Shown: piece by piece, positions 5,748 to 31,750 of the stretch
How positions within the stretch are numbered: the first letter of the stretch is position 1
How the letters are laid out: the number at the start of each line of letters is the position of its first letter
Assembly (NCBI GenBank): GCA_009829735.1
Contig: CM020618.1
Span: 10,941,119-11,005,118, forward strand
Length of the DNA: 64,000 nt
Source of the DNA: Pyropia yezoensis
Lineage: Eukaryota; Rhodophyta; Bangiophyceae; Bangiales; Bangiaceae
Direction of reading: 5' to 3'
Notes under the pieces: model-generated
What the model saw: the letters and a program-made list of their open reading frames with translations, nothing else
What the model was told of the DNA's origin: nothing
The model's database searches: none
Program-made: the position numbers and the translations under genes

Positions 5748-8207
5748 TCAGTGGGTAGACCCACTGCCCGAGGGAGGCCACTCACGCGTAAGCGCGTACA
5801 CCTCCGTGCTCCACCGGTCGGCAATCTCACGACGGTCAATCACCCGAGTTACCTCGGTGCATAGCTGGACGAGGGTGCTGCGGCCAGCCTCCACGTCCTC
5901 CAGAGCTTTCTGGAGGCGGTCAAGCACGCCACCGAAGCAACGCGCTGACCCAACCAGCGCAGCACCTGGGGGGATATCCCCCCAGCTAACAGAGAGACCC
6001 TCCCGCGTTGCGCGGGTAACAAGGGCGTCAACGCCCTCATACCAGAGACGGGGACCCCCGTCATGCATGACAGGGGCGGGAGGTGACACTGGCGCAGCCA
6101 GAGGAGCCACAGGAGCCGACACGGCTACCACCGGAGCCGGTGGCACCTGATACGAGGCCCGGTAGGACCCTACCGAAGGGGCTCCACCGTAACCCCGGCG
6201 GGGCTCCGCCCGACGACGGGACACCTCACGCTTCCCACCCGCAGAGCCCCACTCTCGGGGACGACGGCCAACCGCCGCCGGTATCGGGTTACCGAACCAC
6301 GGGGCAAGGACCTGAAGAGGGTCATGGATAACCATGGGAATACCCAGGTCAGCAACAGCCTCGGTGGACGCCCTCCCATGGCAACTGGGCTCACCCGGCT
6401 GAGTACGCCGGATACGCAACGAGTGACGAGGCAAGGGGGAAGCCCCAGCCTGCGGGTCCCGGTACGGGGGAAGGGCCAACACCCCAGCCCAGTTCACGGC
6501 ATCGTGAACAGCCAGCAGGGCCTCGAACTCCCGGGCCAACCCGGTCCGGGCAGCGATCAGGTCCACGCCCAACTGCGCGATGTGCCGACGGACACCCGTC
6601 GGACGATGGAACAGGCGCCCCTGCCAGCGGACGGACAGCAGGAAGGAGGAAGCCTGCCCGAGGGTAACCTCAAGGGTAAAGGTATCCTGCAACGGGTGGA
6701 CCGGTCGGGAGGCCAACACACTCCCGAAGTATCGGAGACAAGGGCCGGTGTCAAACCCGAAAGCAGGGGCGGGTTCCCACCCCTCCTGCCACAGAGGCGG
6801 GCGCACGGGAGTGTATACAGGCGCACGACCGTTGCCGGTCTGCGACGCACACGTTATATCGGTGCGGAACGCATCCGCCATGACGCCATGGTTACGTCGC
6901 CAGCTCGACGCCGACTTCAAACCCGCCATAGGCGGGTAGGGAGCCGTCAACGACAGATACGGGGATACCCCCGGGTAATAAGCGAAGTCGGGATACCGAC
7001 CGGTATCGCCCACCGTCTCCCCGAACGCAACCGGCGCCGCCGCCGCCGCAATCCCCCGAGCACTAGCCGGGTAGTCAACCTCCCGCGGCAACGCGGGAGC
7101 AATCAGGTCGCATACCCCGAAGTTGGGGTCGAGGTAGACCTCACCCCGTCCCACCCGGGTGCGCCAGAGCTGCGCATGCCGGTCGTCCGGCTGACTCAGG
7201 ATCCAATGGTGTTCCACCCGGACCGCGTTCGGCTGGTTGACCAGCCGCACCAACTCCCGCTCCGAACTCGGGTCCACCTTGACGCGCCGGGAGGACTCTC
7301 CACGGGGATGGGGCAGGTGGAAGTCCACCCGCATCCGCCCATCGGACTCCATTGACTCTTGCACAGACAGGCCTCGAACCCGAGCCACCAAGTCGGTCAT
7401 CGACATGGCGGGTTGACCCGCCGCCACGGCGACGCCGCCACCCAACGGGGCAACCCAGGCAGGACCAGGAAGAATCGGGGGCGCCGGGGGATGCCCCGCC
7501 GGCAGATGGGCCGGCGCCGGAGGTGCGCGAGGCCGAGGAGGAAGAAGGAGGGCGGGCACCCGCCCGGAGTAGCTCCCGGTGTCAACCGCCATGGGGGAAG
7601 GAACGTCTTGACCGTTCGACGCCCGCGGCACCGCGGGTAGGGTACCGGCGCCGCCCCCACCCGTCGACGTCGCCCCCGCCTCGGAAGGGGGAGGCACTTG
7701 GACAGCCTCAGGAGCCTGAGCACCAGCAGTGCGGGCACCCGCACCGTCTTGACCGGCCACCCCGGGCGTCGCGCCACCACCACCACCCGCGTCAACGTCG
7801 GGGTCGCGTTGAGGATGCACCGTCCGGACTCCCGGACCACCTTGACCAGCCGGAGTCGGCTGCGGATCGGCACCTCCGCCGCAGGGCGGGCCTTCTCGGG
7901 GTAGCTGCGGTGAGCCGGCACCGGCACCAGGCTCCATCCGGGCAGCCGGCAGAGAGGGGGTAGAAGCCGCCACGCGCGGTTGACCGCCGGGTTGACCGCC
8001 GGGTTGACCCCCGACCGACGGCACCGTCGTGCCGCTGCACACGGACGACAATCCTCCGGCCGACAGACGGACGGACACAGCAGGCTCGTCGTCTTCAGAC
8101 GAGCTCGCCCCGTAACGCGCGGCGGCAGAATCGACAGGCGCGTCGTCCTGCATCTCCTCCCCGATCAGGAGGTCTTCCTCCTCCCCAAGCACCAGGGGAT
8201 AGGACAT
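5748..8207 (-). CDS. Antisense ORF protein of retrotransposon E1 (aORF-E1)
   Basis: A long open frame on the strand opposite gag-pol, lying between the end of pol and the 3' LTR. The ATG at 8207 starts MSYPLVLGEEEDLL and gives 819 residues; the frame is open upstream to 8363. The N-terminal third is acidic then Pro/Gly/Ala-rich; a compact, aromatic-rich core follows with WRTR...GVCDL and HGV...FR motifs; the C-terminus is helical and charged. The core aligns with ORFs at the same place in E2 and E3. No known family recognised; the function is unknown. Opposite-strand extra ORFs are known in some plant Ty3/Gypsy lineages, but homology to those is untested. Confidence 0.65.
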   Translation of the reverse strand: MSYPLVLGEEEDLLIGEEMQDDAPVDSAAARYGASSSEDDEPAVSVRLSAGGLSSVCSGTTVPSVGGQPGGQPGGQPRVAASTPSLPAARMEPGAGAGSPQLPREGPPCGGGADPQPTPAGQGGPGVRTVHPQRDPDVDAGGGGGATPGVAGQDGAGARTAGAQAPEAVQVPPPSEAGATSTGGGGAGTLPAVPRASNGQDVPSPMAVDTGSYSGRVPALLLPPRPRAPPAPAHLPAGHPPAPPILPGPAWVAPLGGGVAVAAGQPAMSMTDLVARVRGLSVQESMESDGRMRVDFHLPHPRGESSRRVKVDPSSERELVRLVNQPNAVRVEHHWILSQPDDRHAQLWRTRVGRGEVYLDPNFGVCDLIAPALPREVDYPASARGIAAAAAPVAFGETVGDTGRYPDFAYYPGVSPYLSLTAPYPPMAGLKSASSWRRNHGVMADAFRTDITCASQTGNGRAPVYTPVRPPLWQEGWEPAPAFGFDTGPCLRYFGSVLASRPVHPLQDTFTLEVTLGQASSFLLSVRWQGRLFHRPTGVRRHIAQLGVDLIAARTGLAREFEALLAVHDAVNWAGVLALPPYRDPQAGASPLPRHSLRIRRTQPGEPSCHGRASTEAVADLGIPMVIHDPLQVLAPWFGNPIPAAVGRRPREWGSAGGKREVSRRRAEPRRGYGGAPSVGSYRASYQVPPAPVVAVSAPVAPLAAPVSPPAPVMHDGGPRLWYEGVDALVTRATREGLSVSWGDIPPGAALVGSARCFGGVLDRLQKALEDVEAGRSTLVQLCTEVTRVIDRREIADRWSTEVYALTREWPPSGSGSTH

Positions 8208-8784
8208 GATAAAGGGTGGCAGAGGCCCCCGCGTCCACAAGCCGTCGACGGCTACGACCCGGTACGGTGGGACAACCGGGACGAGCCAGGGAAGCGCGGG
8301 CACCCGCGCTAATGACCACAAACGGCCACGAGAAGCGCCGCAGGCACGCGGGTCGACCCGCACCCCACGGGGCTACGAACCCGCTCCACCCAGGCACCTG
8401 GGCGGGACGGGGCCACACCATCGTACGGGGCACACAAGGGGGGTACCCCCCAACCGCCCCCACTCAACGCGGGCAGCCCCCGCCACCCACTCAATCGTCC
8501 ACGCGAGAGGGCCCCCCCCCCTACCACCAGACAACTGGTGGCGGATCCGCTTGCACCACCCCTCGGAAAGGGGGGTCGTGAACAGAAACCCGCATCGGGA
8601 AATTAACGGTCCGGAAAACAGATCGTGTGTGTACCACACAAAGGGGGGCACCCCCCTCAGACAACCTCGAAAAGAGGTGTCTGTCGCGACAGGGCGCAAA
8701 GCCCCACCCGACTGGTAAACGGTCACGCGACGCACTTACATTCGGTAACCCGAATGCAACTCGACCCGAGGACGGGCCGAATCT

Positions 8785-8796
8785 AAGGGGGGGATA
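8785..8796 (+). other. Polypurine tract of E1
   Basis: AAGGGGGGGATA directly precedes the TGTAGCA start of the LTR. In LTR retrotransposons this tract primes plus-strand DNA synthesis, and its position fixes the orientation of E1 as plus. Confidence 0.75.
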
Positions 8797-9159
8797 TGTA
8801 GCAATATGGTTGTCCGTATTGTGACCCTAATATTAGGGGGGCTACTTCTAATCCTTAACTTTCAATTTGAGAGTCCGTACTGGTCACGGTATCTATAAGT
8901 TACGTAAGACCAGAGGGACTTGCATCTTGGGGTGGAGGGTAGTTAGTAGTGTCTCCGAGGATTTATAACGAGGGGGCCGGCGGCGAATCCACCGCCGGCC
9001 AAGGTAGAACAACAAACGCCTCCCATTTGGGCTCCCATCTTGGTCCCGTGGCTTGCGCTCCAAGGACAGCAACCTTGGCATCCCGGTGACGTTGGTGCCG
9101 ATCCCCCTTGGTGAGTGTTCCCTGAGAGTGGACGTGTGGCGGATTCCTATTGTGCTACA
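8797..9159 (+). repeat. 3' LTR of E1 (363 bp)
   Basis: Bounded by perfect 7-bp inverted ends TGTAGCA / TGCTACA, with a polypurine tract on its left and foreign pol coding sequence on its right. A TATA-like TTTATAA lies near 8963. The 5' partner is off the window, so LTR divergence cannot be used to date the insertion. Confidence 0.8.
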
Positions 9160-9164
9160 CTCAG

Positions 9165-11365
9165 TACCCCCGGACCCAGACCCAGATGAGGAGCTTCCTC
9201 GGGATGTGTAACGTGTACCGACGCTTCACCAAGGGCTTTGCCAAGGTGGCGAGCCGTTGAATGAGTTAGTGAGCTCAACGCTACCGAAGAACCTGCCTCC
9301 CCCAAGTCGGGTGGAGCAGGAATCCTTTGAGACTCTTCGGGATCTTCTGCTGAAGCCCCCTATCCTGGCTATTCCCAGGTTGGGAGGCCACAATATCCTG
9401 GATGTGGACGCTAGCTACGACCAACTTGGTTGTGTGTTGCTTCAGCAGCAGCCTGACAAGGAGTACATGCCGGTGGGATACTTCAGCAAGAGTCTGAACT
9501 CGGCCGAGAAGAACTACGAAGTCACCGAGTTGGAAGGACTCGCAGTGGTGTGGGCGGTGACGTCACTTCGTCACTACCTAGAGGGTGAGAAGTTCCTCAT
9601 CCGCTGTGACCACCGCGCGTTGCAGTTCATCTTCAAGACGGATTGTACGAACACTCGTCTCAACCGGTGGAGGGTGCGACTGGCACCCTTCAACTTTGAG
9701 TTTGAGTGCCGACCTGGCAGGCAACATGCCCTTGCCGACGGCCTTTCTCGGGTACATACCGAGGGGCTGGACACTAACCCAGTCGATGAGGACATCTCCA
9801 TCGTGGGGGTAGTCACGCGCTCGGGTCAGGCGTTGAACCCCGAGGCGCCAGGGAACAAGAAGTACTTGCCCCTGTCCCTGGACGAGGTGGTGAAGGCCCA
9901 GGCCGAGGATCCCTTCTGCAAGTCGCAGAGGGATACACTGGATACAGTGGCGGAGACGCGGTTCTTTCTCGGAGACGATGGCCTCCTCTTGAGAAGGGGG
10001 GTAATCCAGGGGACCGAACAACTTGTCGTCCCCGCATCCCTCAAGGACAGTATCCTTGAGATGGAGCATAATGCTCCCACAGGTGGACACCTGGGGTCTA
10101 GCAAACTGTACGAGACCCTGAGCACCAGGTACAACTGGCCGTCCATGGTGGTGGACATCTACAGTTGGGTGGCTGCCTGCACAAGTTGTGCGCAGAACCG
10201 TCTGATGGAACGGCGGCCTACTACGGCTATGCTACTGTTCCCAGCCAAGGAGCCCTTTGCCGCGTTGCCAATGGACATCCTTGGGCTACTGCCAGTGACC
10301 GAGGAGGGCAACCAGTACCTCCTGGTCATCTGTGACCGCTTCACGAAACTTACGCGAGCGATCCCACTGGTAGAGATCACGGCCATGTCGGTCGTGTCAG
10401 CCTTCCTAGATCACTGGGTTGCCGCGTATGGCATTCCGGATAGTACACTATCGGACAATGGACCGCAATTTTCGTCCGTACTGTTTCAGAGAGTGCTGGA
10501 TATGTTGGGGGTGCAGGCAAACTATGCCACCCCCTACCACCCACAAACTAATGGGCAGGTGGAGCGCTTCAACAAGACTATTGTTGGGCAGCTGCGCCAC
10601 TATGTGAGTGAGCACGTGAAAACGTGGGACAAATACACTTCTATTCTTACCACTGCCTACAATTCGAAGGTTCACTCATCTACCGGGGAAGTACTCCTCG
10701 CTTTTGTGACCCCCCGTCGCGTGCGGTCTATTGCCGTGCGGCGGCCGCTCCAAACTGGGGAGGATAGTGGCAGTACGCCTACTCCTACTGAGAGTAAGGC
10801 GGAGTTCGCTGCTAGGCTTGAAAAACTCATTCCTAAAGTCAGGGCTGAGATGGACAAAGAACAAAAGTGCTATAAGCGTACCTTTGACAAGAAGGTGCGC
10901 AATGCTAAGCATGTCCCTGAGCAGGGTGACTGGGTACTGGTACACTCACACACCCCAACTGGGGGTAAGTTGGTATTCCAGACGAAGGGGCCGTACCAGG
11001 TCCTTCGTACTGATGGGCGGCGCTTCACCATCGAAAAAGACGATGGGGTCCGCACAGTAAACGGACAGGATGTGGTCAAAGTTGCACCACCGCCTGCAGG
11101 CGACCCAGCTTGGGCGCGTGCGTTGGAAGCGTGGCGCCTACCCTCGCTGCCTGCGGCCAAGCAGGGCCCGCAGGAGTACGTGTTCGATAAGTTCATCGAC
11201 CACGGCTGGGATGAGGACACTAACCGCCTCATGTTGAGGGTGCGTTGGTTCGGCTACAAAGCCAAGGATGATACGTGGGAATATGTGGAGGACCTTCCCG
11301 CTGAGAAGGTCCAGGCATACTGTGCCCGGAATGAGATAGACCCTAACAGCCCCCCCTCAACGTAA
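9165..11365 (+). pseudogene. pol: Pol of E2, from end of RT through integrase and chromodomain (5' part displaced)
   Basis: Starts inside RT with TQTQMRSFLGMCNVYRRF, the conserved block after the RT thumb, immediately after the LTR of E1. RNase H (DVDASYDQLGC, CDHRALQ), integrase zinc finger (ACTSCAQNR), DDE core (PMDILGLLPV, LSDNGPQFSS) and YHPQTNGQVERFN follow. The last ~55 residues are a chromodomain (RVRWFGYKAKDDTWEYVEDL). The long frame through RNase H-IN-chromodomain is uninterrupted, suggesting a fairly young copy, but the gene as a whole is disrupted by E1. Confidence 0.85.
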
Positions 11366-11476
11366 GGGAAGGCCGAGTAACAGTGCCAAGAGAGTGCTTC
11401 AACTCGAAGTGGTACGCAGAGTGGCTTTTAACTACAGCCCTAACCCTCACACTCTCACAACAAAAGCAGCTGCCAA

Positions 11477-13454
11477 CTAGGCATGCATGCTAGACTCTCC
11501 AACCCCACGGCCCTCGCCCTCACGTGGAGGCGAGCGGCGAGACCCACGTCGATAACGCTCCCCACCAGTCGGTGGGGCCGGCGGCTCCAAGTCGGAGCCG
11601 TCGCGCCCCTCACGGTCGCGCAAGTGGCGATGACCGCGGCTGCTCTTCTGCTTAGTCTTGCGCGCAAGTTGGCGACGTAGACGCCGGACCGACTCCGACT
11701 CTGACGGAGTAGAGGACTCAGAGACGGAGTAAGACAACTCGTCTTCCGACACGGAGGGAGAGCGCCGTGAGCGTCGGCGACGACGGCGAGGAGGCGAGTA
11801 TGCCCGGCTCGCACGACGTTTGCCTTGCCCAAGTGGGGCTGGCTGGGGCATAATAGCCCCAATACGAGCCAACTCGGCCGTCATAAGCTCCGCCACCGAC
11901 TCGCAACTCGCGGTCGCCACCGCAGTACGAACGCGCTCCTCAAGTTGAGGAGTCTCGGAAACTTGAAGGGTTGCGGTCGACGCGGCCAACCAGGAAATGG
12001 TGCGCACCAACGTAATGATCATCATTTCCGAGGTCAGAGGCGTGGCCGGTAACACCAGCTTGGGGTATACCGTCAGAAGGGTGGCCCCCAAGTTGGGGGA
12101 CACCGGGGTGGACGACTCAATGGCCACGATTATCGGGATGTCCCCGTGCGGCTGGTAGGGGACAGGAGGAAGCGGAGGGGCCCGCCGAGGTGGCGGTGCC
12201 CGAGTTTAACTGCGGCCCCTACTCGGGGCCCCCGCAGTGGGTTGAGTCATATAGTCATCGTGGGAGGGCACGGCCATCACTATGGCCTTGTCCGGGGGCG
12301 GCGCAGTGTGGCGATCCACCCCCGGGGCATACGGGTAGTCCCCGATGCCCAACCCCTCTCGTAGCACCACAAGGCCGTCGTGAAGTGCACGAGCGACCCA
12401 TACGAACTGGCGAAGTGCGCCATCGTCCTTGGGCCCACGAGTGGGGCGGCGCAACTTGTGCTCGATGCTCTCCCACTCGATAAACTTGTGGAGGTGGAGC
12501 ATCTCCTCAAGTAGAGTGAGTTGTCCTGATGAGCATCCCTCAGCAACTAGCTGAGGGGCGAGCTGTTCCAAACCTTGGATAAGCCAAAGGGGGAGAAGCC
12601 AGAGAATCCCCCGCCGCTGGACACAGGACACCCAGGTCGACATGACCTCGAGAAGCCACTGGGTGGCCAACATGGCCCACACCAGGTGATCAGGGCCAGC
12701 CGTCAACATGACGGAGCCGAAGTGGTCGAGTAACGCGGTAGCAACGCAGGGAACCCGTAGGGGACATCGACGGTAGCAACACAGGGAACCTGTAGGGGCC
12801 ATCAGCTTGAGGCCACCACTCGGGCTTCTTCGGGTAGTACTGCTCCTTACTGGCTGCGGACTGCTGCGGAGACTCAAGTTGAGCCGAGGTCACCAAGTAG
12901 GGACCTCGCCGGAAGTCCTTCTCCATCCGCACATCAAAGTGATGAGTGTGCGGGTCAGCCTCGTGAAGGTACAGGGGGCGAGTTGCCACAGCGTCCCAAT
13001 TGAAGGTCGGCAAGTCGCCGGGACCCGGGATAGTTCCCCCGCGGTCCACCATGGCCTTGGCCCGCTGTACGTCTTCGACCTCCTCATCGTCCAGGAAGGC
13101 AAACTGGTCCGTCCTGAAGCCGGCAGGGAACCCGACCCTACGGGGATACTTCTCCCGTAGGCGGTCCCAAACCCGACCCATCGCTGTGCCAAGTCGGCCA
13201 CAGCGAAGAACAGTTAACCCCGCCTCATACAGAGGCCAAGCGGGGTAGAACCACCGCCCCAAGGCCTCACGTGGGACGACTTGGCCCGCTTCCGGGGGAG
13301 ATCCCGCCGTCAACCCAAAGCCGGGTGACGCGGGAGTCCCATCCCCCGGAGTAACCGCGGAGCCCCCGCCGGAAGTCCCGGCGGGCGCTGCACCGTAGGA
13401 GGTGTCCTCCATACGTTCGTCAAGGGAGTCCGTCTCCACCCCCGGGGTCGCCAT
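11477..13454 (-). pseudogene. Antisense ORF region of retrotransposon E2 (aORF-E2, broken)
   Basis: Opposite-strand coding region between pol and the 3' LTR. The N-terminal part (ATG at 13454, MATPGVETDSLDERME) contains the core shared with E3: a W-x-R....YP..V..P.G...D block and an RPLYL..AD.H..H..VR block. The distal part ends in a serine/arginine-rich tail (PPRRRRRRSRRSPSVSEDEL). It has a small number of breaks. No known protein family was recognised. Confidence 0.5.
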
Positions 13455-13778
13455 GGCTCTCCCCAAGTTGGGGAGAGACGCCCTGGCTACAGCGGCACGA
13501 GACCCGCCTCGAGTTGAGGGGGGCTCGGATCGTGGGTAGATGGGTGGCCTCCCCAGCGTGGGGCGGCCCAGGGGAAGGTGAAGGGGATGTGGTGGTGGTG
13601 GTGAAGTGAGAACCGGGGAGAGCGAGCTGCCGAGTGGGCAAGCTTGAGGAGAGGGGCGGTCAACGTAACCGCCTCCACATCCGCGTTCGTACTCTAGGGG
13701 GGACAGCAAGTCGCGCCCCCAACGCCGAGACGTGCGTTTACGCACTCCCTCACAGGGCCGACCGGGTCGGTCGGAACT

Positions 13779-13791: not shown

Positions 13792-14260
13792 TGTGGCAGT
13801 ATTGACCCCCAGGTAGGGGGGCAACACGTGCCATGCAAGGGGCGGCAGGCCACTAGCCTGACCCGTTCCTCCCCCTGCATTTGGGTCCATATTCCCTAAG
13901 TTCGGGATAGTTAGCTTAGTAGTAATTCCACCTTGGATTTGGGGGGTTTCTGCATTTATCGTCTTGAATTTTCGTGTGGCCCGGTGGGCAGGTGCTGGGG
14001 TGGAAGATTCTGAGTGGCGAGATTCTGAGGGAACACTGGGGGGATAAGGGGAGGGACAGCGGGGCGTGGCCCTGCGTCCCCGTCCCGACCAAGAAACTGT
14101 TGGACCACACACCATCTTCTTGTTTGTCAGTGAGGGGATTGCCCCACAACAGGGATAGAGTGTGTGCGACTTGCACTTCTTCCGGTTCCCCCGACACGGG
14201 AGGCAGCCCTTGTACACCGCCCCAACTTGGGTGTTGCGTGTGCGAGAGGTTTTTGCCACA
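13792..14260 (+). repeat. 3' LTR of E2 (469 bp)
   Basis: Perfect 7-bp inverted ends TGTGGCA / TGCCACA. The left neighbour is a polypurine tract; the right neighbour is transposase coding sequence on the minus strand that is cut exactly at this point. Confidence 0.82.
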
Positions 14261-14600: not shown

Positions 14601-16263
14601 GCCGGCGGGTACACAGGTCTATTGGCGGGGGGGGAAGGAGCTAATGGCAGGCGTAGGGACGCGGGTGACGACGATGGTGGGCGTGACGACGACGACGATG
14701 AGCGTGGCGGCGGTGGCGACGGCGGTTGGCGTGGTTGGCCACCCCCCCAGGAATCGGCCCCACGGCCAGTGTCGCAACGGACACGCCGCGCCCCCCCCCC
14801 CCAACCCCCCAAAACATGCTTGCAGAGGGCGGTCGGGTGGCCAGAGCACGCCAGCACATTCCTATCTTCGCGTCGGCCAATCAAGGGCAAGAAATCGGGC
14901 AAACGCTGTGCCCCCTGTCCTCCCCCCTCATCCAGTCGCCACAGGGGCGCGATGCGGTCGGGCCCCCGCACGCTCATCCGCCACCAGCAAGAAGACACTG
15001 TTGGCAGGGGGAGGGGGCTCGGCGGCCGTTCCGAGGCTTTGCCGCCTGCATCAATTCACCCAATCAGCGGGCGGCAATCACTGTGGCGCCGCCGCCCCTC
15101 CACGCCAGGTGCCCATTCCACGCAGTTCTGGAGGGGGGGGCGCTTTCGCTATCGCTGCCGGAAATCAACGGTCCCAGGGGGGATGGCAACAAAGCACGCA
15201 CGTGTTGTCATGAGACCGCGGTGTGGATTGCCGCCGGCATCAACCACGTCCCGTCGGGATAGCCGGCATGCGCTTCGGCACACGAGGGCGATATCACTTC
15301 AGAAAGCCGACGGCGGGGCGCATCAAGCGCCAGTCGGGAGGCGATCGTCGGGCGACGCGGACGCGATCGTCTACGTCTAGAATGGTATTCAGAAAATTGC
15401 CACGCGGCACGCTACGGACTCTCCAGATCGCCTGCCAGAGGGCCTCGAGAATGGGGAATGGTCTTGGTCCTCCCCCATTTCTGAAACAAATGGGGCGGGA
15501 CCAAGACCAACCCCCATTCCTGAATCTCAATCGACAAGGAGTTACCGGCGGTCGGGTAAATGACTTCAAAACGCTTGCAATAGTCTTGGGGTCCCAGTGT
15601 TGCTACAGGCACCCGACCAACCCGTTCATTGCCGAATCGACCACATTTGTGTCATATTGGGGTGGTTTGGGGGGCAATGTTCTACCACGTGTACATATTC
15701 GGTTGGGGTTGGCTGTTGAGGGGCGTGCTCTTATGAATCAACACGGGATTCCCACGAGGCACAAGACTAATACATGTGCCGAACCAGGTTTACATATTGC
15801 ATACATAATACATAGATTGTGTTGGGTTCCTGCCGAACTTGGGGTCGTGAAACAGCCAAGATAAACTCGCTTTAGTTGTTGGCTGTGCCGTTATCTATAC
15901 ACGGCATGGGGAGGACACTAATGTTTAGATCGTGACAACTATTTAGTAGCTGTTGAGCGCCGTGAGTGGGCTCGCGACTTATTGCGCCAGGCGACGAGTG
16001 CGCGACACCACCGCTGTCGGCCGGCCCCCTCCACCACCGCCGCGCCTTCCGGCGGCTTTGCCCTTCACTCGCGTGGCCGACGCTTTCTGTCACGGATCCC
16101 GGCTTCCCCGCCACCCCCCCATCCCTCTGCCTTCTTGCTGTTTGTGACCAGACCCCGACGGCAAGGTGAGCGGCGACGCGCAGTGGGCCCGCCGGTCGTC
16201 CGACTTCCCCGTTCTTCCCCCTGACATCCACCTCGTTGCACCGCCGCTTTTTTTGTGGCGGTC
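14601..16263. other. Intergenic region upstream of amine oxidase gene
   Basis: No convincing gene. The first ~600 bp are G/C-skewed simple sequence with several overlapping frames and no recognisable protein. From about 15550 to 15950 the composition shifts to AT-richer DNA with plain unstructured sequence, which would suit the promoter region of the gene starting at 16264. A hairpin is listed separately. Confidence 0.5.
15447..15522. repeat. Imperfect inverted repeat (hairpin, ~34-bp arms, 7-nt loop)
   Basis: Arms 15447-15480 and 15488-15522 share the core GGTCTTGGTC / GACCAAGACC and CCCCATTT / AAATGGGG, separated by CTGAAAC. It could be a small foldback remnant or a transcribed hairpin. 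There is no visible target duplication. Confidence 0.6.
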
Positions 16264-19200
16264 ATGATGGGCGACCCCCATGCCCATGTCGCCGCTGCCG
16301 GCGCCCCTGCCGACGCCGAGTCGCCCCGCGGCGGCGGCGGCGGCGGCGGCGGACCAGCGGCGGCGGCGGCCAAGCGAGCACGCCCTACGCTGCCACCACC
16401 CCCACCTCCGCCGCCGGCCGCCGCGGCGGCCGCTTCTCCCCCGGCGCGAGGCGCCGACGCGGCGGCCGCCGCCCCCCCCACTGCCACCACCCCAGCGGTC
16501 ACCCCCGCACCCACCCCCGCTGCCGACACCCCCGCGCCCGCACCCTCCCCCACCCCCACCCCCACCCCGACCCCCACCCCCACCGCACCCAGTGTCACCC
16601 CCGCCGCTGCCACCGCCGCTGCTGCTTCCGCCGTGACCTGCCCCGCTGCTGCGGCCGCCGGCTCCCTCCCAGCCATCCTCGCTCCCGCGGGTGCCACCCC
16701 CCCCGCCACCGCCCCCGCGTCACCCAGCGCCCCCTCGCGGGAGGATTACGACGGCGACGGTGGCGCCGGCGCCGGCGCTGGCGACGGCTGCACCACCACC
16801 CCTGCCCGGCGAAAGCCGGCGTCGTCCAATGATGCGGCGGCCGACGACGGGGCGGGTGGCGACGGCGACGGCGGTGGCGGGTCGCCGCGGGGGGGGTCGC
16901 CGCGGAGACTGGGGGGGAACGCCGCGCCGACCGGGGGGGGCGCTGTGAAGAGAGGCACCCCGCCGGGCTCCTCTGTCGCCCCCACCGTTACCAGTGCCGG
17001 CGCTGCCGCTTCGCCCGCCGCTGCGCCCGCCGACGGGGTTGCCAAGGCGCCGCCGCGTCGGTCGCCCCTCCCGTCGAACGCAGCCGCGTCAGCTGCCTCG
17101 CCGCCTCTCCCACTGCGGGCGGGGGGGGAGCCGCTCTCGCCGGCCGCCGCGTCGTCCCCACCTTCCCCACCCACCGCGGCGAGGCCGCTCTTTGCGGCCT
17201 CACCGTCCGTGTCTTCTGCTTCGTCGCCGTCGCCGCCGCCATCCACAGTTCCGGTGTCCGTTGCCGCCGCCGCCTCTCCTGCTGCCGCCGCTTCCACTGC
17301 CGAGCCGCCTTGCGCCACCAAGCCCGTGGTGGCTCCCTGCGGGGGCACTCCTCCTTGCGCGGCCTCCCCGCTGGGCGACGGTGCCGCTCCCAGCGGGGTG
17401 TCTCCGCCGCCACCCCGCGCGACGTCGCCGCCTCCCCCCGGCCGCGTACCGTCCCCGTCGCCACCCCCCCCTGGCCCACTAGTCCCCCCACCGGCGGCGT
17501 CTCCATCGCCCTCCGCCGGCGGCAGCCTGCGGCCGGGTCCGGCGGCGCCTGCTTCTCCGTCGCCCTGCCCGACCGCGTCTACCCCCTCCACCCGCTCGGG
17601 GCTGCTTGCACGGCCGCCTCCGTCGGACACGCCGCCCGCGCCGTCTGGGTCGCCATCCCCTGCCGGCACGCCCGCCCAGACGCCATCGGCGCCCGATGCA
17701 GCGACCGCGGGCAGCGCTGACGCCGGAGCGGCAGGCGGTCGTGCTGCGCCGGGCAGCAGCCGCCCGCTGGCCCCGTCTCCGGGGTCCACGACGCCTGTGC
17801 CTGCCGTGGCGGTGGTGTCCCCACTGGCAGCTGACGCGGCGCCGCCACGGAGCGTGCTCGTTATCGGCGCTGGGCTGGCGGGCCTGGCCGCCGCCCGGGA
17901 GCTGGCTGCTACTGGCTTTACCGTGACCGTGCTGGAGGCGCGCCCTCGCCTGGGTGGCCGCGCCATCACGGACTGGTCCATGGGCTGCCCCGTCGACATG
18001 GGCGCTGCCTTTGTCCATGGCATCGACGGGAACCCGCTGTCGCCACTAGTATCTGCCGCAGAGGTGGAGCTGTACAATCCTCGGGAGGTGTCGTCGCTCT
18101 ACAACAGTGACGGGAGCGTCATCCCGCGGGAGGATGACCAAATGATGATTGCCCTGTGGCGTCGCATGATGACCATGACGGAAAGCTTTGTGCGCAAGCC
18201 CCCCCTGTCCACGGTCTCCTCCTTGGACGTGCCCCTGAGCGAGCTTATCGAGCAGCTGACTGAGGTGCTGGAGCTCACTCCCGCCCAGGCGGCAGCGCTG
18301 ATGTGGCACGTGTGCAACACGGAGATGCCCTGCGCGGCGGACCTCCGCGACCTGTCGGCCAAGCACTGGGACATGGACGTGTACCACGCGTTTAAGGGGG
18401 AGCACCCCGTCTTGTGCACAGGCTACTCGGCGCTAGTGGCCAAGCTCGCAGCGGGCACCGTCGTGCACACGAGCACCGTGGTGCAGACCATAGAGTGGGA
18501 TGTGCCAATTGAGCCACCGGCCGGGGGTGGGGGGCGCGCCGCCGCCCCTGCCGGCGCCGTGGGCTGCTCGTCCCCCGCTGGTGCCAAACCCGCCGGCAAC
18601 CTCCCGCTGGGCGTGCGCGTGACCGCCACGGTACCGGGCGGCGGCACCCGCACCTACGCTGCCCGGTCGGTGATTGTGACGCTGCCGCTTGGGGTCCTCA
18701 AGGCCGGCGACGTGGCGTTTGCTCCTCCCCTGCCGCGGTGGAAGGCGACGCCGATTGGGCGGCTCGGGAGCGGTCTGCTCAACAAGGTGGCCCTCCGGTT
18801 TGCCGCCCCGTTTTGGCCCCCCACCGCCGACTATGTGGCCCACGCGGCGGGCAATGGAAACCCGTCCACCCGGTGCACGCACTTTCTGTTCCTCTCGCTT
18901 GCCGCCGCGACGGGCGCGCCGGTGCTGGTTGCGTTCCTTGCCGGTTCGGCCGCCGAAGCGGCCGAGGCGGAACCCGACGCCGCCCTCGTGGCGTCGACCA
19001 TGCGCGTCCTTCAAGGCATCTTCCCCGCCGCGCCCGCGGCGCCGCTCGCACACGTCGTTACCCGCTGGCGATCCGACCCGTACGCCCGCGGCTCCTACTC
19101 GTACCCCGCCGTCGGCGCCACCCCCGACGACTACACCTCCATGGCCTCCCCGGTGGGGTCCACCCTCCGGTGGGCGGGGGAGGCGACCAGCCGGGAGCAC

Positions 19201-19542
19201 CCGTCCACCGCCCACGGCGCGTACGTGTCGGGCCTGCGCGAGGCGATGCGCCTGCTGCGCGACGACGGGGGGGGCCTGTCGACGGCGGCGCTGGCGCTCG
19301 TCGAGGCCCAGGTGACAGGCATGGCCCACCCGCCGGGGGGGTCGGGCACCCGCCTGCGGTGGCGGCGGCGGCCACCCCCGCCGCAGGGGGGGGAGGGCGG
19401 GGGGGTGGCGTCGGCCGTCGCCGCCCCTGCTGCCGTCGCCCCCGCTGCCGCGGCGACAGCGGCGGCGGCGACGCCGGCCGGCGGCACCCCGCAGCGGCCG
19501 TCGCGGCGGCGCAAGCGGGCGCGCCCGGCAGTTGCGTCTTGA
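16264..19542 (+). CDS. Flavin amine oxidase (polyamine oxidase / LSD1-like) with long low-complexity N-terminus
   Basis: Single-exon gene, 1092 residues from ATG 16264 (a second ATG is adjacent; the frame is open slightly upstream without ATG). Residues 1-~525 are Ala/Pro/Ser/Gly-rich with no fold visible. The enzyme starts at ~530 with the FAD Rossmann motif VLVIGAGLAG (G535, G537, G540), acidic E558 and LGGRAI. The C-terminal FAD motif is WAGEATSREHPSTAHGAY (970-987). A Lys in GLLNKVALRF (K841) matches the flavin-contacting lysine of LSD1 and polyamine oxidases, and RWRSDPYARGSYSY resembles LSD1. No SWIRM or tower domain is seen. The C-terminus RRRKRARP (1081-1088) looks like a nuclear localisation signal. 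Expected chemistry is FAD-dependent oxidation of a secondary amine (polyamine or methyl-lysine); the substrate cannot be chosen. Confidence 0.88.
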   Translation: MMGDPHAHVAAAGAPADAESPRGGGGGGGGPAAAAAKRARPTLPPPPPPPPAAAAAASPPARGADAAAAAPPTATTPAVTPAPTPAADTPAPAPSPTPTPTPTPTPTAPSVTPAAATAAAASAVTCPAAAAAGSLPAILAPAGATPPATAPASPSAPSREDYDGDGGAGAGAGDGCTTTPARRKPASSNDAAADDGAGGDGDGGGGSPRGGSPRRLGGNAAPTGGGAVKRGTPPGSSVAPTVTSAGAAASPAAAPADGVAKAPPRRSPLPSNAAASAASPPLPLRAGGEPLSPAAASSPPSPPTAARPLFAASPSVSSASSPSPPPSTVPVSVAAAASPAAAASTAEPPCATKPVVAPCGGTPPCAASPLGDGAAPSGVSPPPPRATSPPPPGRVPSPSPPPPGPLVPPPAASPSPSAGGSLRPGPAAPASPSPCPTASTPSTRSGLLARPPPSDTPPAPSGSPSPAGTPAQTPSAPDAATAGSADAGAAGGRAAPGSSRPLAPSPGSTTPVPAVAVVSPLAADAAPPRSVLVIGAGLAGLAAARELAATGFTVTVLEARPRLGGRAITDWSMGCPVDMGAAFVHGIDGNPLSPLVSAAEVELYNPREVSSLYNSDGSVIPREDDQMMIALWRRMMTMTESFVRKPPLSTVSSLDVPLSELIEQLTEVLELTPAQAAALMWHVCNTEMPCAADLRDLSAKHWDMDVYHAFKGEHPVLCTGYSALVAKLAAGTVVHTSTVVQTIEWDVPIEPPAGGGGRAAAPAGAVGCSSPAGAKPAGNLPLGVRVTATVPGGGTRTYAARSVIVTLPLGVLKAGDVAFAPPLPRWKATPIGRLGSGLLNKVALRFAAPFWPPTADYVAHAAGNGNPSTRCTHFLFLSLAAATGAPVLVAFLAGSAAEAAEAEPDAALVASTMRVLQGIFPAAPAAPLAHVVTRWRSDPYARGSYSYPAVGATPDDYTSMASPVGSTLRWAGEATSREHPSTAHGAYVSGLREAMRLLRDDGGGLSTAALALVEAQVTGMAHPPGGSGTRLRWRRRPPPPQGGEGGGVASAVAAPAAVAPAAAATAAAATPAGGTPQRPSRRRKRARPAVAS

Positions 19543-20022: not shown

Positions 20023-20053
<31 letters not shown>

Positions 20054-20610: not shown

Positions 20611-20641
<31 letters not shown>

Positions 20642-26039: not shown

Positions 26040-27255
26040 GAGGATGTCTCGGAACGGTTTGATGGTTGTGGCGCCCTGTTCTCCTGGGTGGACCAGCTGG
26101 ATGCGTTCATCACGGAGCGGAAGATTCCCCCATCGGCCGTCTTACTACGAAGAATGCCGCCTGGTGGCGGGCGGGAAACGTCTGGCGGTCAAGCGCGTGC
26201 AGGCGGCTGAGCGGGAGCGGGCCAACGTGGCAACCACCCGTGGCGCCACTATGGCAAGCCTACTGTCCTTTGCGGGTGGCGACGGGGCCCCGTTCCTCAG
26301 CGTGTACATCTTCCGAGGTCGGTTCGGTGAGAAAGACTTAGCAGCCAGCAGCTTTGTGCTCTCTCGCTGCCGGACCCGCACGCGTGCATCATGGCCGCGC
26401 TACTACGGGTGGACCGAGTCTGGCTTTATTGACTCCACGACCATTTCCGCCGTGATGGACCTGTTTTGTTGGGAGTGACAGCTCCGTAACCCCGGGCGGG
26501 ACTGCTTGCTGCTGGGCGACTAGTTGCCATCCCACAAGCAGGTGGATGTGGTGCGGTCGGCGCTCAAGTACAACGTGCACCTTTGGTGGCCGGTTGCCAA
26601 CACATCCCACTTCCTCCAGGTGCTGGATGACAAGTGCTTTGCAGTGCTCAAGACGCACGTGCCCATCCTATCGGAAGAGAAGATTGTCCGCGCTCTGCTG
26701 AAGAGCCAGCCTACCCGTGATTGCGTGCTGCAGGCGGCGTACGGGGCAGAGAGGATTGCCTTCACCCCCACCACCATCAGGGCGTGTTTTTAGTCCGTCG
26801 GGCTCGTGCCTTTCGACCGCCAGCGCGTGCTCCACCTCGCCCGCATCAACCTCGGGATGGACCTTCCCCAGGACGACGTTGCTGACCAGGCGCGCGCGGC
26901 GGCCGCTCTGGTCATCCGTCAAAGCCATGACCAGCATGCTGCGGACTCGCGCACCGTCGTGGCGGGCCGTGCTACGGTCAAGAAGGGGCGCATATACAGC
27001 GGCGGCGATCTGCCGGACGCGCACTGCGCGGAGGTGGCTGCCAGCGCAGCGGCTGCCGCCGCCAAGGCGGACAAGTCCGCTGCCAAGAACGCAGAGAAGG
27101 TGACGGCCGCCCAGGAGAAAGAGAAGCAGCGGAGGCAGCGCGTCCGGGCTACGTGCCGTCTGTGTACAACACGCACCCACCGAGGGCGGGCGGGTTGGTC
27201 TGTATGCCCCTGTGTCTCCTTCTGTGTTTGTCCGATTTGCTTCAAGACTCGGTGA
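26040..27255 (+). pseudogene. pogo/Tigger-type (DDE_1) DNA-transposase relic
   Basis: The catalytic half of a DDE_1 transposase is recognisable. ATTRGATMASLLSFAGGDGA and LSVYIFRGRF match the block after the first Asp; GWTESGFIDS follows. CLLLGD + PSHKQVDVVRSALKYNVHLW and NTSHFLQVLDDKCFAVLK match the second Asp and the H-LQPLD block. KKGRIYSGGDL then a coiled Lys/Ala-rich tail ends it. One frame carries nearly all of this but has in-frame stops at 26476 (TGA), 26521 (TAG) and 26791 (TAG). A frameshift near 26140-26150 separates it from WVDQLDAFITERKIPPSAV, read in the next frame just upstream. The N-terminal DNA-binding domain and the TIRs were not found. It is a dead copy. Confidence 0.72.
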
Positions 27256-27667
27256 TGGGAAAGCCCTGATGGGGGCACACAGTGTCGTGTGCTCGGATCT
27301 TGTGTGACGCCATTTTTCCACATGTTTGTGCGCTCTCTGTTTCTCTCCTGGTGTACTATTCTCTCTCCCGGACTCGTCTCAAAAGGCGAATTTACACCCC
27401 CAGATGCGAATTTATCACCGTGTCTCCAGGAACGAGCCCAAACAAAAGGGCGTGCTGGCGGGGCCTTGCACCAAGACCGCCACCAGCGACCGCTCGCCGC
27501 CAGACGGTGGTAGGTGGCGCCCGCCCACGATGCGCGACACGGGGGCCGCCGCGGCGGGCGTGGTGGCGGCGGCGGCGGCGGGGCCGCGCCCGCCGCCGTC
27601 ACCGCCGCCCACAGGAAGAGTGTCCCGCGTGCGCGGTAGGCCACGGCGGGCGACGGAGTGCCGGCTG
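27256..27667. other. Spacer between pogo relic and retrotransposon block
   Basis: No gene recognised. The second half (27500-27660) is a GC-rich (GGCGGC)-type stretch that encodes only Ala/Pro runs. It ends where LTR-derived sequence begins at 27668. Confidence 0.45.
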
Positions 27668-27873
27668 TGTCGTATAAAACTCGATCCTCGCAGACACGTG
27701 TCAATATCCCTCGGGGGAAATGGACAGGTAACAGAGAAAGAGGAACTACGAGAGTGGTATGCCTGTTGCCTCACGTGCCTGCTCGCAGAGCAAACAGATA
27801 CGCACGGTAGTGCACACGGGGAAGAGGAAAGCAAACGCGCAGTTGTCTTTTTCCTGAGGGCGCGGGCCAAGGG
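27668..27873 (-). repeat. Inverted 206-bp LTR fragment abutting LTR of copy A
   Basis: This segment is the reverse complement of the last 206 bp of the adjoining LTR (28239-28444), with a few differences. Copy B has no such segment next to its LTR. It therefore looks like the end of a second, oppositely oriented LTR of the same family that was left behind when copy A inserted or rearranged. Together the two arms could fold into a hairpin with a ~365-nt loop. Confidence 0.75.
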
Positions 27874-28444
27874 TGTAGCATCCCTGGCCCCGACTTGGCG
27901 CCGACCCGGGACTGCAACCAGAGGGCACCAGGTGCCAGAACACGCCCGCCGTGTGTTGATGGTTGGCGGCCGTGGCCCGTGCCCGGCACTGGGATGCGGT
28001 GGACTACGCTATCCACACGTGAGAGAGGGACTTCTGATGGGTTTTTGCATATTTGTGAGGGACTTGATTCGAGAGAATTTGAGTGTGAGATTAGTGAGTG
28101 GGAATAGAATTAGTAGTGATAGTGGCCCCCGACCTGACGAGGTTAGACTCGGGTCGGGGCCACTCGGGGTCATGGGGGGGCTACCTTGCCAACGTGCCGA
28201 GGCTCCCCCAGATGCACGTTAAGAGGGACAGCGAGGCGCCCTTGGCCCGCGCCCTCAGGAAAAAGACAACTGCGCGTTTGCTTTCCTCTTCCCCGTGTGC
28301 ACTACCGTGCGTATCTGTTTGCTCTGCGAGCAGGCACGTGAGGCAAGAGGCATACCACTCTCGTAGTTCCCCTTTCTGTGTTACCTGTCCCTTTCCCCCG
28401 AGGGATATTGACACGTGTCAGAGAGGATCGAGTTTTATACCACA
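27874..28444 (+). repeat. 5' LTR of copy A (571 bp)
   Basis: Starts TGTAGCATCC and ends TATACCACA; its boundaries are fixed by comparison with the inverted LTR of copy B (53140-53716, 577 bp), with which it shares nearly its full length at a few percent divergence. The antisense strand carries TATAAAACTC just inside the 3' boundary. Confidence 0.8.
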
Positions 28445-28448
28445 TATG

Positions 28449-28465
28449 TGGTGGAGCAGCAGGGG
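28449..28465 (+). other. Primer-binding site of copy A
   Basis: TGGTGGAGCAGCAGGGG begins four bases after the LTR. It is complementary to a tRNA 3' end that terminates in CCA. The tRNA species was not identified. Confidence 0.6.
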
Positions 28466-28655
28466 AAGTTGGAGTGTTTAAGAAGAGACATTTGGGAGCA
28501 GCGGTTGGGTTGTTCCTGTTCTGTCCTTTTCTGTGACTTGGGAATTATTTGCACCCGTTCACGGGAATCCCATTCCTGGCTCTCCAACCCCTCTCTTGTG
28601 GTCTGGCGATCTTTGGACACGCAGGCAACTGGACTGTGGCTGTCTAGAGACCAAC

Positions 28656-29153
28656 ATGGCTACCCTCCCTGGCACGACGGTGCCCGAAGGGGTAGACCCA
28701 GCGTCCCTTGACGCAGCCCTGGTCACCGCGGGGGACGGTGTTCAACCCGGCGTTGTCCCTACGGGTGAAGCAGACCTGGGTGTGACATCCGGTAGCGGAC
28801 TGGAGTCAACAGGCGGCCAAGCACCTCCTGCTCCCGCTCCTCCGGCTGTTCCTCCTGTGGGAGCCACCCCGGGGTCAACGGCGTTTGATTCCGCTCGCAG
28901 CAGACGTCTCCCTCCTGTCGGTTCTACTCCTGAAGTTCCAGGGATACCCCCTTGTGTGTTTACTCCAGGACCTACACATGGCAGCTGGGTGTATACACCT
29001 CTTCCTGTGGGCACTAGCAGTGCCAGAGGCACCGCTGCGACTGGTTCTACGGGTCTTCCTGAGCCTTCGACTCCTGGGACTGGCCAAGCTTTCCCTCCCC
29101 TTGCATCCTCTGGGGCGGGGAGCTCCAAGACCGGTAACCGGAGCAGCCGGAGG
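28656..29153 (+). pseudogene. gag: gag of copy A, N-terminal part (cut by E3)
   Basis: ATG 28656 begins MATLPGTTVPEGVDPASLDA, a Pro/Gly/Ser/Thr-rich leader that ends at SSKTGNRSSRR where E3 has inserted. The same leader opens the uninterrupted gag of copy B, with about a dozen residue differences over 166. Confidence 0.8.
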
Positions 29154-29692
29154 TGTAGCAGTACTCCCAAGCACCAACCCCGAGGCAGGGAAGGAAGAGG
29201 AGTATTGCCGATATCCCAACTTGGGACACCGGAAGCAAGCACCTCCACACAGCCGAACACGGAACTTGCGTGTGGTGAGCGGGTCCACTCACCAAGGCAC
29301 GAACAAGATGTGTCGGAGCCAGACGGTGTTTTCTTGCTTGGCCAGCCAAGGTGGGCCCTCCCCGCCTTGCTGTCCCTCCTTATCAACCCTCCTCACACGC
29401 TCACGCAACCCCTCAAAACACTCAGAAAATGAACCCTCAAACAAACCAATCATATCACTCCACATGCAAAGAACTCAAAGCGTAGAAATCCGTCTGGCTC
29501 CCGTGCAAAAATCCCAAGAAACAAATACCAGCAGCATTACCCTGCTCTAGTATGTCGGAAGTCCTAGTCGAATTTCCGTCCAGAAGTCAGAAGTTTCACC
29601 ATCGTGGGTCGGGTGAATTTCGACTTCCGGTCAGGTCCACTTGACCCGAATCTTCAAAGTATTGGTACCGAATTCCGGCCCAATCTCCCACA
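29154..29692 (-). repeat. 3' LTR of E3 (539 bp)
   Basis: On the minus strand it runs TGTGGGAGATTGG...TACTGCTACA. It matches 42315-42853 along its full 539 bp and is flanked by the target duplication on the outside and the polypurine tract on the inside. Confidence 0.9.
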
Positions 29693-29705
29693 TTTCCCCC
29701 TTCTC
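29693..29705 (-). other. Polypurine tract of E3
   Basis: GAGAAGGGGGAAA on the minus strand abuts the LTR start TGTGGGAG. It confirms minus orientation and identifies 29154-29692 as the 3' LTR. Confidence 0.8.
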
Positions 29706-30697
29706 AAAAGTCCAGCCGTCCCGGTGGACGTCCAATCAGCGGCGAGTCGCAGTGACCGGGAGAGGAGGATGCAATTCCCGAGTTGAGATGCAAAGTACGG
29801 TGCATCGCTGGCGTCTAGCGTGCACCAGGGTTACGCCGGGGTTGCACTCGCGTCCGGCGGGGCCCTCCGGGAGAGGCAGTCCCTCTCCGTGGGGTGCGCT
29901 CTCTGCCCTGACACTGGGTAGAGGAGCCCCCTCCACGCGAAACAGGTGTGGGGGAAAGTCGTCCCCCACCTGGTCAGGGTGCTCCACGGGTGGACTCACG
30001 TGTGGGTGAGCCCCCTAATCTGGGTGTCGGCGTACCTCCGCCACACCCCCTGCCCCTCAACTGGAGGAGTAGGGCGTCGACGTTCTCACTCGGAACGTCG
30101 ACCTGCACCTGCCCCTTCAGTTGGGGTACGGTTGCTCTCGGGGGGTCGGGTTGTGTTCCCCCCTTCAGCTCGATCCACCCCCAGCTGGCTCTCTGCGGGG
30201 TGTTCCTCACTCCTTCCCCCCCCTTTCTAGTCAGGGTTGAGGGGTGTGCGCACCCCGAGTTGGGGGTGTTGCACTCGGTCGCCGGCGGTGGGACTCGGCC
30301 GCCGGTGCGGGGTCTTCTCTCCCCTTCGTGTGTGCGGGCGGGTGTGTGCCTTCCCGCCGCTGCTCCCTCGCGTCGGCGGGTCTGTCTCTTCCCGCCGTGC
30401 GGTTGGTGTCGTTGGTTGGGGTGGTGTCTTCCCCCTTCCGCCCCTGTGTCGGGCGTCTTCGTTGTCGGTGGGGGCGTGGGTTGTGTTCCCCCCCCTTTGT
30501 CCTCGTTGGCGGGGTTGTGTCTTCCCCGCGCTGCCCCTTGTGTCGGGCTTCTTCGTTGTCGGTGGGGGGTGTGGGTCGTGTCCCCCCCCCTTGCTCTACC
30601 TCACCGAGTCGGTCAAGGTTGGTTGTCGTCGGAGGGGGAGCGGGTCGTGTCCCCCCCCGTGCTCAACCTCACCGAGTCGGTCAAGGTTGGTCGCGTG
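29706..30697. repeat. E3 region between 3' LTR and antisense ORF, with short tandem repeats
   Basis: No coding gene recognised. The block 30400-30692 is built of repeated G/T-rich pieces. TCTTCGTTGTCGGTGGGG occurs twice about 90 bp apart, and CCTCACCGAGTCGGTCAAGG occurs twice 68 bp apart. It lies directly upstream of the antisense ORF start, so it may include its leader or promoter. Confidence 0.6.
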
Positions 30698-31750
30698 ATG
30701 GCGGGTGAGCCGAGTCGGCCTTTGTCCCCGTCTCCGACGTCTCTGTCGGACAAGCGACGGACGGGAGAGGAGGCCCTCGGGACTGAGGAGTCTCTCAGCC
30801 GGGGGTCGGCCATGGAGACGACTCGTCCCGGGCGAGGGTCGGAGGCGGCCGCCTCAGCCGTCCCCGCCCCATCACCTCCTACTGCCCCCTCGGCCGTGGT
30901 CCCACCGGGGGATGGGTCTTCCAACCCGGTGGCGGAAGGGGATGTAACTCCCATCCCCCGCCTTCCCGAGTCACGGCTGCTACTCCCGCCGCGGCCCCGT
31001 CCTCCTATGGGGCCCCGAGCCTGGGCGCCTCCCAAGTCAGTCGGGGAGCTTCCCGACTGCAAGCTCAAGGATGTCTACTTGATCATCCCCGAGCCACGGC
31101 GGACCGACGTATGGTACCGCCGGACTCGTCGGTACCCCAACCAGGTGACTCTACCTGATGGGGTGGTCTGCGACCTACCAGCGCTACTCTGCCTGGCGGA
31201 CGCGCCTGAAGTCCAGGCGTTGTCAACCTCCCTCGCCTTGGGGTCGGGCGACAAGGAGATCGACGACACCCACGCGGTTGTGTCTACCGAGTGGTGTGCC
31301 CTTCCCCGTCCCTACCTGGGCGGAGAGGACGCCCACGCCCAACACGGCGTGGTGCGAGAGGAGTTCCGACTCCGGGGCTCCTCGGGCTTCCTCATCCACG
31401 GGTCGCGGGTGGAGTTCACCCACGTACCTCTGGAGGAGCGTGAGCACCAGTACCCTTTTCTCCCAGGGTGGTGGGGGTGGCCATATGGAACGCTAGAGTC
31501 AGCGGTCGAACGACTTGTTCTTTCCTTGGTGAGAAGAGTGGTGCGTATTCTTCTCGTTTTGTATTGTGCCATAGTCGGCTTTGTTAGTAGAGAATCTTTG
31601 AAGAACCATGGTATGTGTTTGTACTCATGGTTGGCTTGCCGCTCTGCTCTGACTTGGAGCAGGGACTTCATCCCCCGACGTACGAGTGCTACGTCGGCGT
31701 ATAGATATGCCCACAGTCTGGCAGTATCTACGGACCTTCTCTACTGGTAG
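30698..31750 (+). CDS. Antisense ORF protein of retrotransposon E3 (aORF-E3)
   Basis: Plus-strand ORF in a minus-strand element, 350 residues from ATG 30698 (MAGEPSRPLSPSP); the frame is open further upstream through repeat DNA. The N-terminus is Pro/Ser-rich, then comes a compact core: VYLIIPEPRRTDVWYRRTRR, YP..V..PDGVVCDL, RPYLGGEDAHAQHGVVREEF and PGWWGWPYG. The core aligns with the antisense ORFs of E1 and E2. A hydrophobic segment (LVLSLVRRVVRILLVLYCAI) follows. The last 126 bp overlap the 3' end of pol tail to tail. No known family was recognised; the role is unknown. Confidence 0.68.
   Translation: MAGEPSRPLSPSPTSLSDKRRTGEEALGTEESLSRGSAMETTRPGRGSEAAASAVPAPSPPTAPSAVVPPGDGSSNPVAEGDVTPIPRLPESRLLLPPRPRPPMGPRAWAPPKSVGELPDCKLKDVYLIIPEPRRTDVWYRRTRRYPNQVTLPDGVVCDLPALLCLADAPEVQALSTSLALGSGDKEIDDTHAVVSTEWCALPRPYLGGEDAHAQHGVVREEFRLRGSSGFLIHGSRVEFTHVPLEEREHQYPFLPGWWGWPYGTLESAVERLVLSLVRRVVRILLVLYCAIVGFVSRESLKNHGMCLYSWLACRSALTWSRDFIPRRTSATSAYRYAHSLAVSTDLLYW

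What the first reader, a model, noticed from the sequence alone, without database searches (positions are those of the whole stretch)
5748..31750. Conserved antisense gene in three divergent Ty3/Gypsy elements
E1 (5748-8207, -), E2 (11477-13454, -) and E3 (30698-31750, +) each have a coding region opposite to gag-pol, between the end of pol and the 3' LTR. The predicted proteins share a core. E2 and E3 align without gaps over about 35 columns: W.R....YP..V..P.G...D, then A.L, then [DE]VQ. This is followed by RP(L)Y L..[AE]D.H..H..VR.E..FR. E1 and E3 share W.(R)TR......G V.CDL, HGV...FR and a W..GW.P end. Same place, same strand and shared motifs in elements whose pol genes are clearly different suggest an inherited antisense gene, possibly regulating the element or its silencing. 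Extra antisense ORFs are known from some plant Ty3/Gypsy lineages; I know of no description for red algae, but could not search.
Basis: partly seen in the sequence, partly recalled or inferred. Interest (0 to 1): 0.9.

Follow-up and report, generated by a model that had tools for sequence, protein, structure and literature searches.

The report
Antisense gene in red-algal Ty3 retrotransposons
Three different families of jumping genes in a nori seaweed genome carry related versions of an apparently undescribed protein gene, written backwards between their usual genes and their end repeat, and the pattern of changes in it suggests that the protein matters.

Summary
E1, E2 and E3 are Ty3/Gypsy elements of what is very probably Pyropia yezoensis. 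Each has a frame opposite to gag-pol, after pol. The proteins are homologous: E2-E3 by HMM at 7.6e-36 and 5.5e-17, E1-E3 by profile comparison at 3e-7. 36 of 37 (E1) and 27 of 28 (E2) scored genomic places keep pol end and this region in line. E1- and E3-type proteins have 42-52% identical relatives in Pyropia vietnamensis. dN/dS, one divergent pair each, is 0.36 and 0.35. Corrections: the window's E3 gene lacks about 1.1 kb; undeleted copies encode 638 residues, so its last 275 bases and the 'GW.P end' are deletion artefacts. The window's E2 frame is broken by a short duplication. No known domain was found; fold prediction was off. Antisense accessory ORFs are known in plant and fungal LTR elements; this is a new variant of that kind, an apparently unrelated protein family in red algae. 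Best guess: a trans-acting accessory protein with its own antisense transcript. Transcription and function are untested.

The parts
211..5293 (+). E1 element: gag-like frame 211-1668 and pol frames 1975-4011 and 4352-5293 (RT, RNase H, weak integrase match)
   Evidence: gag assigned by place only
5748..8207 (-). E1 antisense gene, 819 codons, one frame; core about residues 337-582
9257..11365 (+). E2 pol, 3' part (RNase H, integrase, chromodomain-like end below the Pfam cut-off)
11477..13454 (-). E2 antisense gene, in three frames in this copy; likely start codon at 13454
13792..14260 (.). probable E2 3' LTR: a unit of about 469 bp also found apart from the element
   Evidence: inferred from separate matches to query bases 4535/4536-5004; the LTR pair was not shown
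29154..29692 (-). E3 3' LTR (539 bp, 1 mismatch to the 5' LTR at 42315-42853; GGAGG duplication on both sides)
29693..30697 (.). leader between E3 3' LTR and antisense start codon; polypurine tract next to the LTR, a two-copy 94-bp repeat at 30409-30593
30698..31475 (+). E3 antisense gene, N-terminal 259 codons (rest deleted in this copy)
31468..31475 (.). 8-bp repeat at the junction of the roughly 1.1-kb deletion
31476..31750 (+). frame beyond the deletion, not part of the gene (spacer and antisense of the pol end)
31625..35614 (-). E3 pol (RT, RNase H, integrase, weak chromodomain-like end)
35653..37311 (-). E3 gag (zinc knuckle just below the Pfam cut-off); a second copy at 40234-42012
42315..42853 (-). 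E3 5' LTR

Best explanation
E1, E2 and E3 inherited one antisense accessory gene from an older Ty3/Gypsy ancestor. It encodes a protein of about 640-820 residues: a Pro/Gly/Ser/Ala-rich, probably disordered start, a core of roughly 250-300 residues rich in aromatic residues and shared by the three families, an arginine-rich stretch, and a C-terminal block conserved among E3-type proteins. I propose that it has its own antisense transcript, starting in the leader or 3' LTR and running towards pol, and that the protein acts in trans in the element's cycle, most likely in the nucleus (transcription, pre-integration complex or integration). Shown: place, strand, homology, purifying selection in one pair each of two families, and that copies lacking most of the gene sit at several different sites. 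Inferred: common descent rather than exchange between elements, the transcript, the nuclear site and the role.
For: Homology of the three proteins and the same ranking as pol: E2-E3 61% in pol and 29-39% in the antisense protein, E1-E3 36-46% and 25%. Codon-position identity 2 > 1 > 3 in each E1/E2 comparison with E3. dN/dS 0.36 (E1; 0.25 in residues 270-819) and 0.35 (E3 type), Fisher p 2e-9 and 2e-6. P. vietnamensis relatives of both types. Collinearity with pol at 36 of 37 and 27 of 28 scored places; 54 of 64 full-length E3-type rows and 48 of 55 E1-type rows without stops. Four copies with the deletion have four different flanks, so the gene is not needed in cis. Nuclear, self-promoted antisense proteins are reported for plant elements (PMC7264820).
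Against: No transcript, promoter, fold or known domain. Each dN/dS rests on one pair; among 30 near-identical E3 copies ratios scatter from 0 to 1.9 or are undefined, on 2-9 changes each. The deleted form has spread, so the protein may be dispensable. E1 is only weakly linked by the HMM, and the E2 C-terminal piece shows no similarity above shuffles. 98 of 103 E2-type rows report a stop in the matched stretch. Whether the P. vietnamensis proteins lie beside a pol gene was not seen.
Confidence: 0.6

Rival explanations
1. The antisense protein is a structural or particle component (Gag- or envelope-like part) rather than a nuclear or regulatory factor.
For: Layout of a proline-rich start, a globular core and a basic stretch recalls Gag (the analogy is recalled, not tested).
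Against: No Pfam match to any Gag or envelope family; antisense orientation would decouple its supply from gag-pol.
Confidence: 0.2
2. The antisense RNA is what matters: convergent transcripts form double-stranded RNA that tunes silencing, and the protein is incidental.
For: Convergent layout, with stops 454 (E1), 111 (E2) and 128 bp (undeleted E3) apart; this role is discussed for plant elements in PMC7264820.
Against: Protein-level selection (dN/dS 0.25-0.36), excess of synonymous change and cross-species protein similarity are not expected if only the RNA counts.
Confidence: 0.08
3. A host gene or another transposon's gene was captured in antisense by a Ty3 ancestor and now drifts or serves the host.
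For: P. vietnamensis relatives are named as ordinary hypothetical proteins.
Against: Relatives found number ten and four in capped searches and none has a known domain; the gene is kept in three element families. An ancient capture, followed by use by the element, stays possible and fits the best explanation.
Confidence: 0.1
4. Chance: open frames opposite to a GC-rich region, with similarity due to composition.
For: The region is GC-rich and the opposite strand of E1 holds a 422-codon open stretch.
Against: Shuffle tests, dN/dS and cross-species similarity.
Confidence: 0.02

Closest known systems
Antisense additional ORFs of plant Ty3/Gypsy elements (aORF-3R: maize Grande gene23, rice RIRE2, Silene Retand), review PMC7264820 (parts 1 and 2 of 3 read)
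   Same: Between pol and 3' LTR, opposite to gag-pol, present in many copies of a family, protein of unknown function.
   Different: Host is a red alga; no match to Pfam domains including TRP28; pol ends of E2 and E3 are chromodomain-like below cut-off. Sequences of the plant proteins were not compared directly.
Retand elements with TRP28 antisense proteins, PMC11963269 (passages)
   Same: Long pol-3' LTR region with antisense ORFs and, in part, tandem repeats.
   Different: TRP28 (PF04195) not found here; Retand is a flowering-plant, non-chromovirus lineage according to that paper.
Antisense gene brtn of the fungal Boty element (mentioned in PMC7264820; reference title and passages in PMC8365987)
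   Same: Additional antisense gene in an LTR element outside plants.
   Different: Not compared by sequence; fungal host.
Retroviral antisense genes such as HTLV-1 HBZ (named in PMC11963269 and PMC7264820)
   Same: Working analogy only: an antisense transcript from the 3' side that encodes an accessory protein.
   Different: No sequence relation tested and no expression data here.

Membership tests
Antisense aORF between pol and 3' LTR (aORF-3R, a structural class) | lies between pol and 3' LTR | tested here: met
   Shown with both LTRs for E3; for E2 the 3' LTR is inferred; for E1 the gene lies after pol but no LTR was located
Antisense aORF between pol and 3' LTR (aORF-3R, a structural class) | opposite strand to gag-pol | tested here: met
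Antisense aORF between pol and 3' LTR (aORF-3R, a structural class) | present in most copies of a family | tested here: met
   36 of 37 (E1) and 27 of 28 (E2) scored places; capped searches that used the region itself as part of the query
Antisense aORF between pol and 3' LTR (aORF-3R, a structural class) | own antisense transcript and promoter | not testable with these tools
   no RNA data
Retand / TRP28 antisense proteins | TRP28 domain (PF04195) | tested here: not met
   no Pfam family at E <= 1 in 9 of 9 E3-type members; only DUF6214 in 2 of 5 E1-type members
Retand / TRP28 antisense proteins | non-chromovirus pol | tested here: inconclusive
   Chromo matches below cut-off in E2 (23.2 against 25.1 bits) and E3 (16.7), none in E1; no RT tree made
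Env-like additional ORF | same strand as gag-pol | tested here: not met
Ty3/Gypsy (the carrier elements) | RT and RNase H before integrase in pol | tested here: met
   E3 in full; E1 RT-RNase H then weak integrase match; E2 lacks RT in the window

The most novel reading that the evidence does not exclude
Red-algal Ty3 elements evolved, independently of plants and fungi, an ancient trans-acting antisense accessory protein of a wholly new family, kept through at least three element lineages and a Pyropia species split: a further convergent invention of an HBZ-like antisense gene in LTR elements.
Probability: 0.35. Interest if true: 0.75.

Novelty: new variant of a known kind. Interest (0 to 1): 0.6.

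Why it matters
Antisense accessory genes of LTR elements are known from plants and fungi and their function is an open question (PMC7264820). An apparently unrelated family in red algae, with 228 scored rows in three protein searches of one 107-Mb genome, young insertions and natural deletion copies, suggests that the arrangement recurs and offers a compact system to test why. Relatives are listed as ordinary hypothetical proteins in P. vietnamensis, so the gene also inflates gene counts. LTR retrotransposons are the main repeat class of the P. yezoensis genome (PMC7423979 passages).

Tried and rejected
Known domains: Pfam, NCBIfam, PHROGs and PDB sequence profiles gave nothing convincing. Set aside as chance: DUF6214 (best 0.014, 2 of 5 E1-type members), PDB chains at 0.12 or worse, an NCBIfam match at 0.25 and a PHROG match at 0.13. 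PADLOC was not searched. A viral-contig scan with one P. vietnamensis protein had 2 pattern matches, neither a relative. My first idea, that the 1.1-kb difference among E3 copies was a transposon inserted in the majority, was rejected: the extra stretch continues the frame and aligns with E2 and the P. vietnamensis proteins. The 'GW.P' end fell with it. Selection on E2 was not measured.
Full report
Where it is. The window lies in a genome of 107.5 Mb whose three largest contigs seen measure 43.59, 34.33 and 29.39 Mb. Passages of PMC7423979 give scaffolds of 43.6, 34.3 and 29.4 Mb for Pyropia yezoensis, so the host is very probably that red alga; this is an inference.

Anatomy. E1 has gag- and pol-like frames on + up to 5293 and the antisense frame at 5748-8207. 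E2 has the 3' part of pol up to 11365 and the antisense region at 11477-13454. E3 runs on the minus strand between LTRs 29154-29692 and 42315-42853 (1 mismatch in 539), with GGAGG on both sides and a polypurine tract next to the 3' LTR. Its pol stops at 31625 and its antisense gene starts at 30698 on +. The leader between LTR and gene holds a two-copy 94-bp repeat. Convergent stops lie 454 bp (E1), 111 bp (E2) and 128 bp (undeleted E3) apart.

The window's E3 gene is incomplete. In fetched regions the common form has about 1110 bp more at that point, with an 8-bp repeat at the edge; this stretch continues the antisense frame to 638 codons. The exact junction string of the window was found in 5 of the 8 loci L001-L008; for one of the other three (L005, inside L020) the alignment runs through the point without a gap. 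The window copy, L013, L014/L015 and L020 carry the deletion and have four different flanks, so the deleted form has spread.

The proteins are homologous. An HMM of six E3-type proteins searched against 922 window ORFs finds the two E2 pieces at 7.6e-36 and 5.5e-17 and E1 at 0.0022; the best of 20 shuffled ORF sets reached 0.041. Profile against profile, E1 type and E3 type give 2.7e-6 and 3e-7, over 222 and 235 columns. Alignment scores exceed 200 shuffles by z = 37.6 (E2 middle), 10.9 (E2 N-terminal), 8.8 (E1) and 12.4 (E1 core), while the E2 C-terminal piece does not (z = 0.3). Codon-position identity runs 2 > 1 > 3 in these comparisons, as for coding DNA. E2's first frame change coincides with a short tandem duplication.

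The gene sits with pol across the genome. A DNA query from the E1 pol end through the antisense gene gave 37 scored places: 18 over the full length, 18 up to base 3490-3518, and one starting after the pol end; for the 18 shorter ones a separate match of 67-73% identity follows in the N-terminal region. The E2 query gave 27 of 28 places collinear from pol through the gene. The E3-type protein search gave 70 rows, 64 of them full-length, 54 of these without stops; the E1 type gave 55 rows, 48 without stops. For E2, at least 30 of 103 rows report an open frame of 793-806 aa, but 98 of 103 report one or more stops inside the match, whose first 147 of 401 residues lie before the likely start codon; the stops were not located. 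These searches score only the best candidates, so stop-free shares are biased upwards and copy numbers are lower bounds.

Selection. E1 window copy against L052: dN/dS 0.36 (74 synonymous changes on 672 sites, 74 nonsynonymous on 1773), 0.25 from residue 270 on and 0.62 before. E3 type, L017 against L051: 0.35 (46.5 on 523, 45.5 on 1391). Fisher p values are 2e-9 and 2e-6. One search listed 37 rows, five of them the same place fetched twice; the 30 near-identical distinct copies differ from L017 by 2-9 changes with ratios from 0 to 1.9 or undefined, as for very young copies, and one has a one-base gap.

Relatives elsewhere. E3 type: eight and then ten proteins, among them four of P. vietnamensis (44-52% identity over 58-96% of the query), Logan contigs at 50-95%, one ENA protein at 99% and a JGI protein at 34%. 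E1 type: four proteins, two of P. vietnamensis at 50% and 42%. Only 8000 word-sharing candidates were scored per search, so absence from other red algae is not shown, and the surroundings of these proteins were not seen. If the P. vietnamensis relatives sit in Ty3 elements, both types are older than the split of the two species (inference). In E1 elements the antisense protein of other copies is 91-94% identical to the window's, the end of pol 97-98%: it evolves faster than pol.

What it may do. No known domain was found and the fold tool was off. Composition runs from a Pro/Gly/Ser/Ala-rich start through an aromatic-rich core to an Arg-rich stretch and, in the E3 type, a conserved C-terminal block. 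[quoted passage not shown] PMC7264820, parts 1 and 2 of 3 read) and proteins predicted to bind DNA (Retand TRP28; PMC11963269, passages). By analogy, and because deletion copies have spread, a trans-acting nuclear accessory role is my best guess; a particle component is the main rival. That the protein is dispensable to the element is not excluded.

Novelty. Antisense additional genes between pol and the 3' LTR are an established class in plants and in the fungal Boty element (PMC7264820; PMC8365987 passages). Bdelloid rotifer elements also carry additional ORFs; the passages seen in PMC5408684 do not describe antisense ones. The listings of ten literature searches showed no account for red algae; most subscription papers are not in that library. 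I file this as a new variant of a known kind: same arrangement, apparently unrelated protein family, new host group.

Noticed in passing
window 33849-42508: E3 holds an internal tandem duplication of about 4.1 kb (33849-37929 and 38430-42508, 99.8% identical), with a 500-base run of N (37930-38429) between the copies.
   Followed up: no
window 42854-52437: A fourth Ty3-like element forms an inverted duplication of about 4.67 kb (97% identical arms, 247 bp between), and E3 is inserted into it; its 3' region is cut off here, so whether it has an antisense gene could not be seen.
   Followed up: no
window 5748-8207 (E1) and L017:298-2214 (E3 type): Both antisense proteins hold the string LLLPPRPR before the core (residue 220 of P0002, 94 of P0001); it may be a short linear motif or chance in a proline-rich stretch.
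   Followed up: partly
window 7790-8207: Half of the scored E1 places (18 of 37) break off here and go on with an N-terminal region of only 67-73% identity: two forms of the gene's start, perhaps by recombination.
   Followed up: no
window 16255-19542: A long + strand frame with a strong amine oxidase match (PF01593, 1.5e-67), probably a host gene.
   Followed up: no
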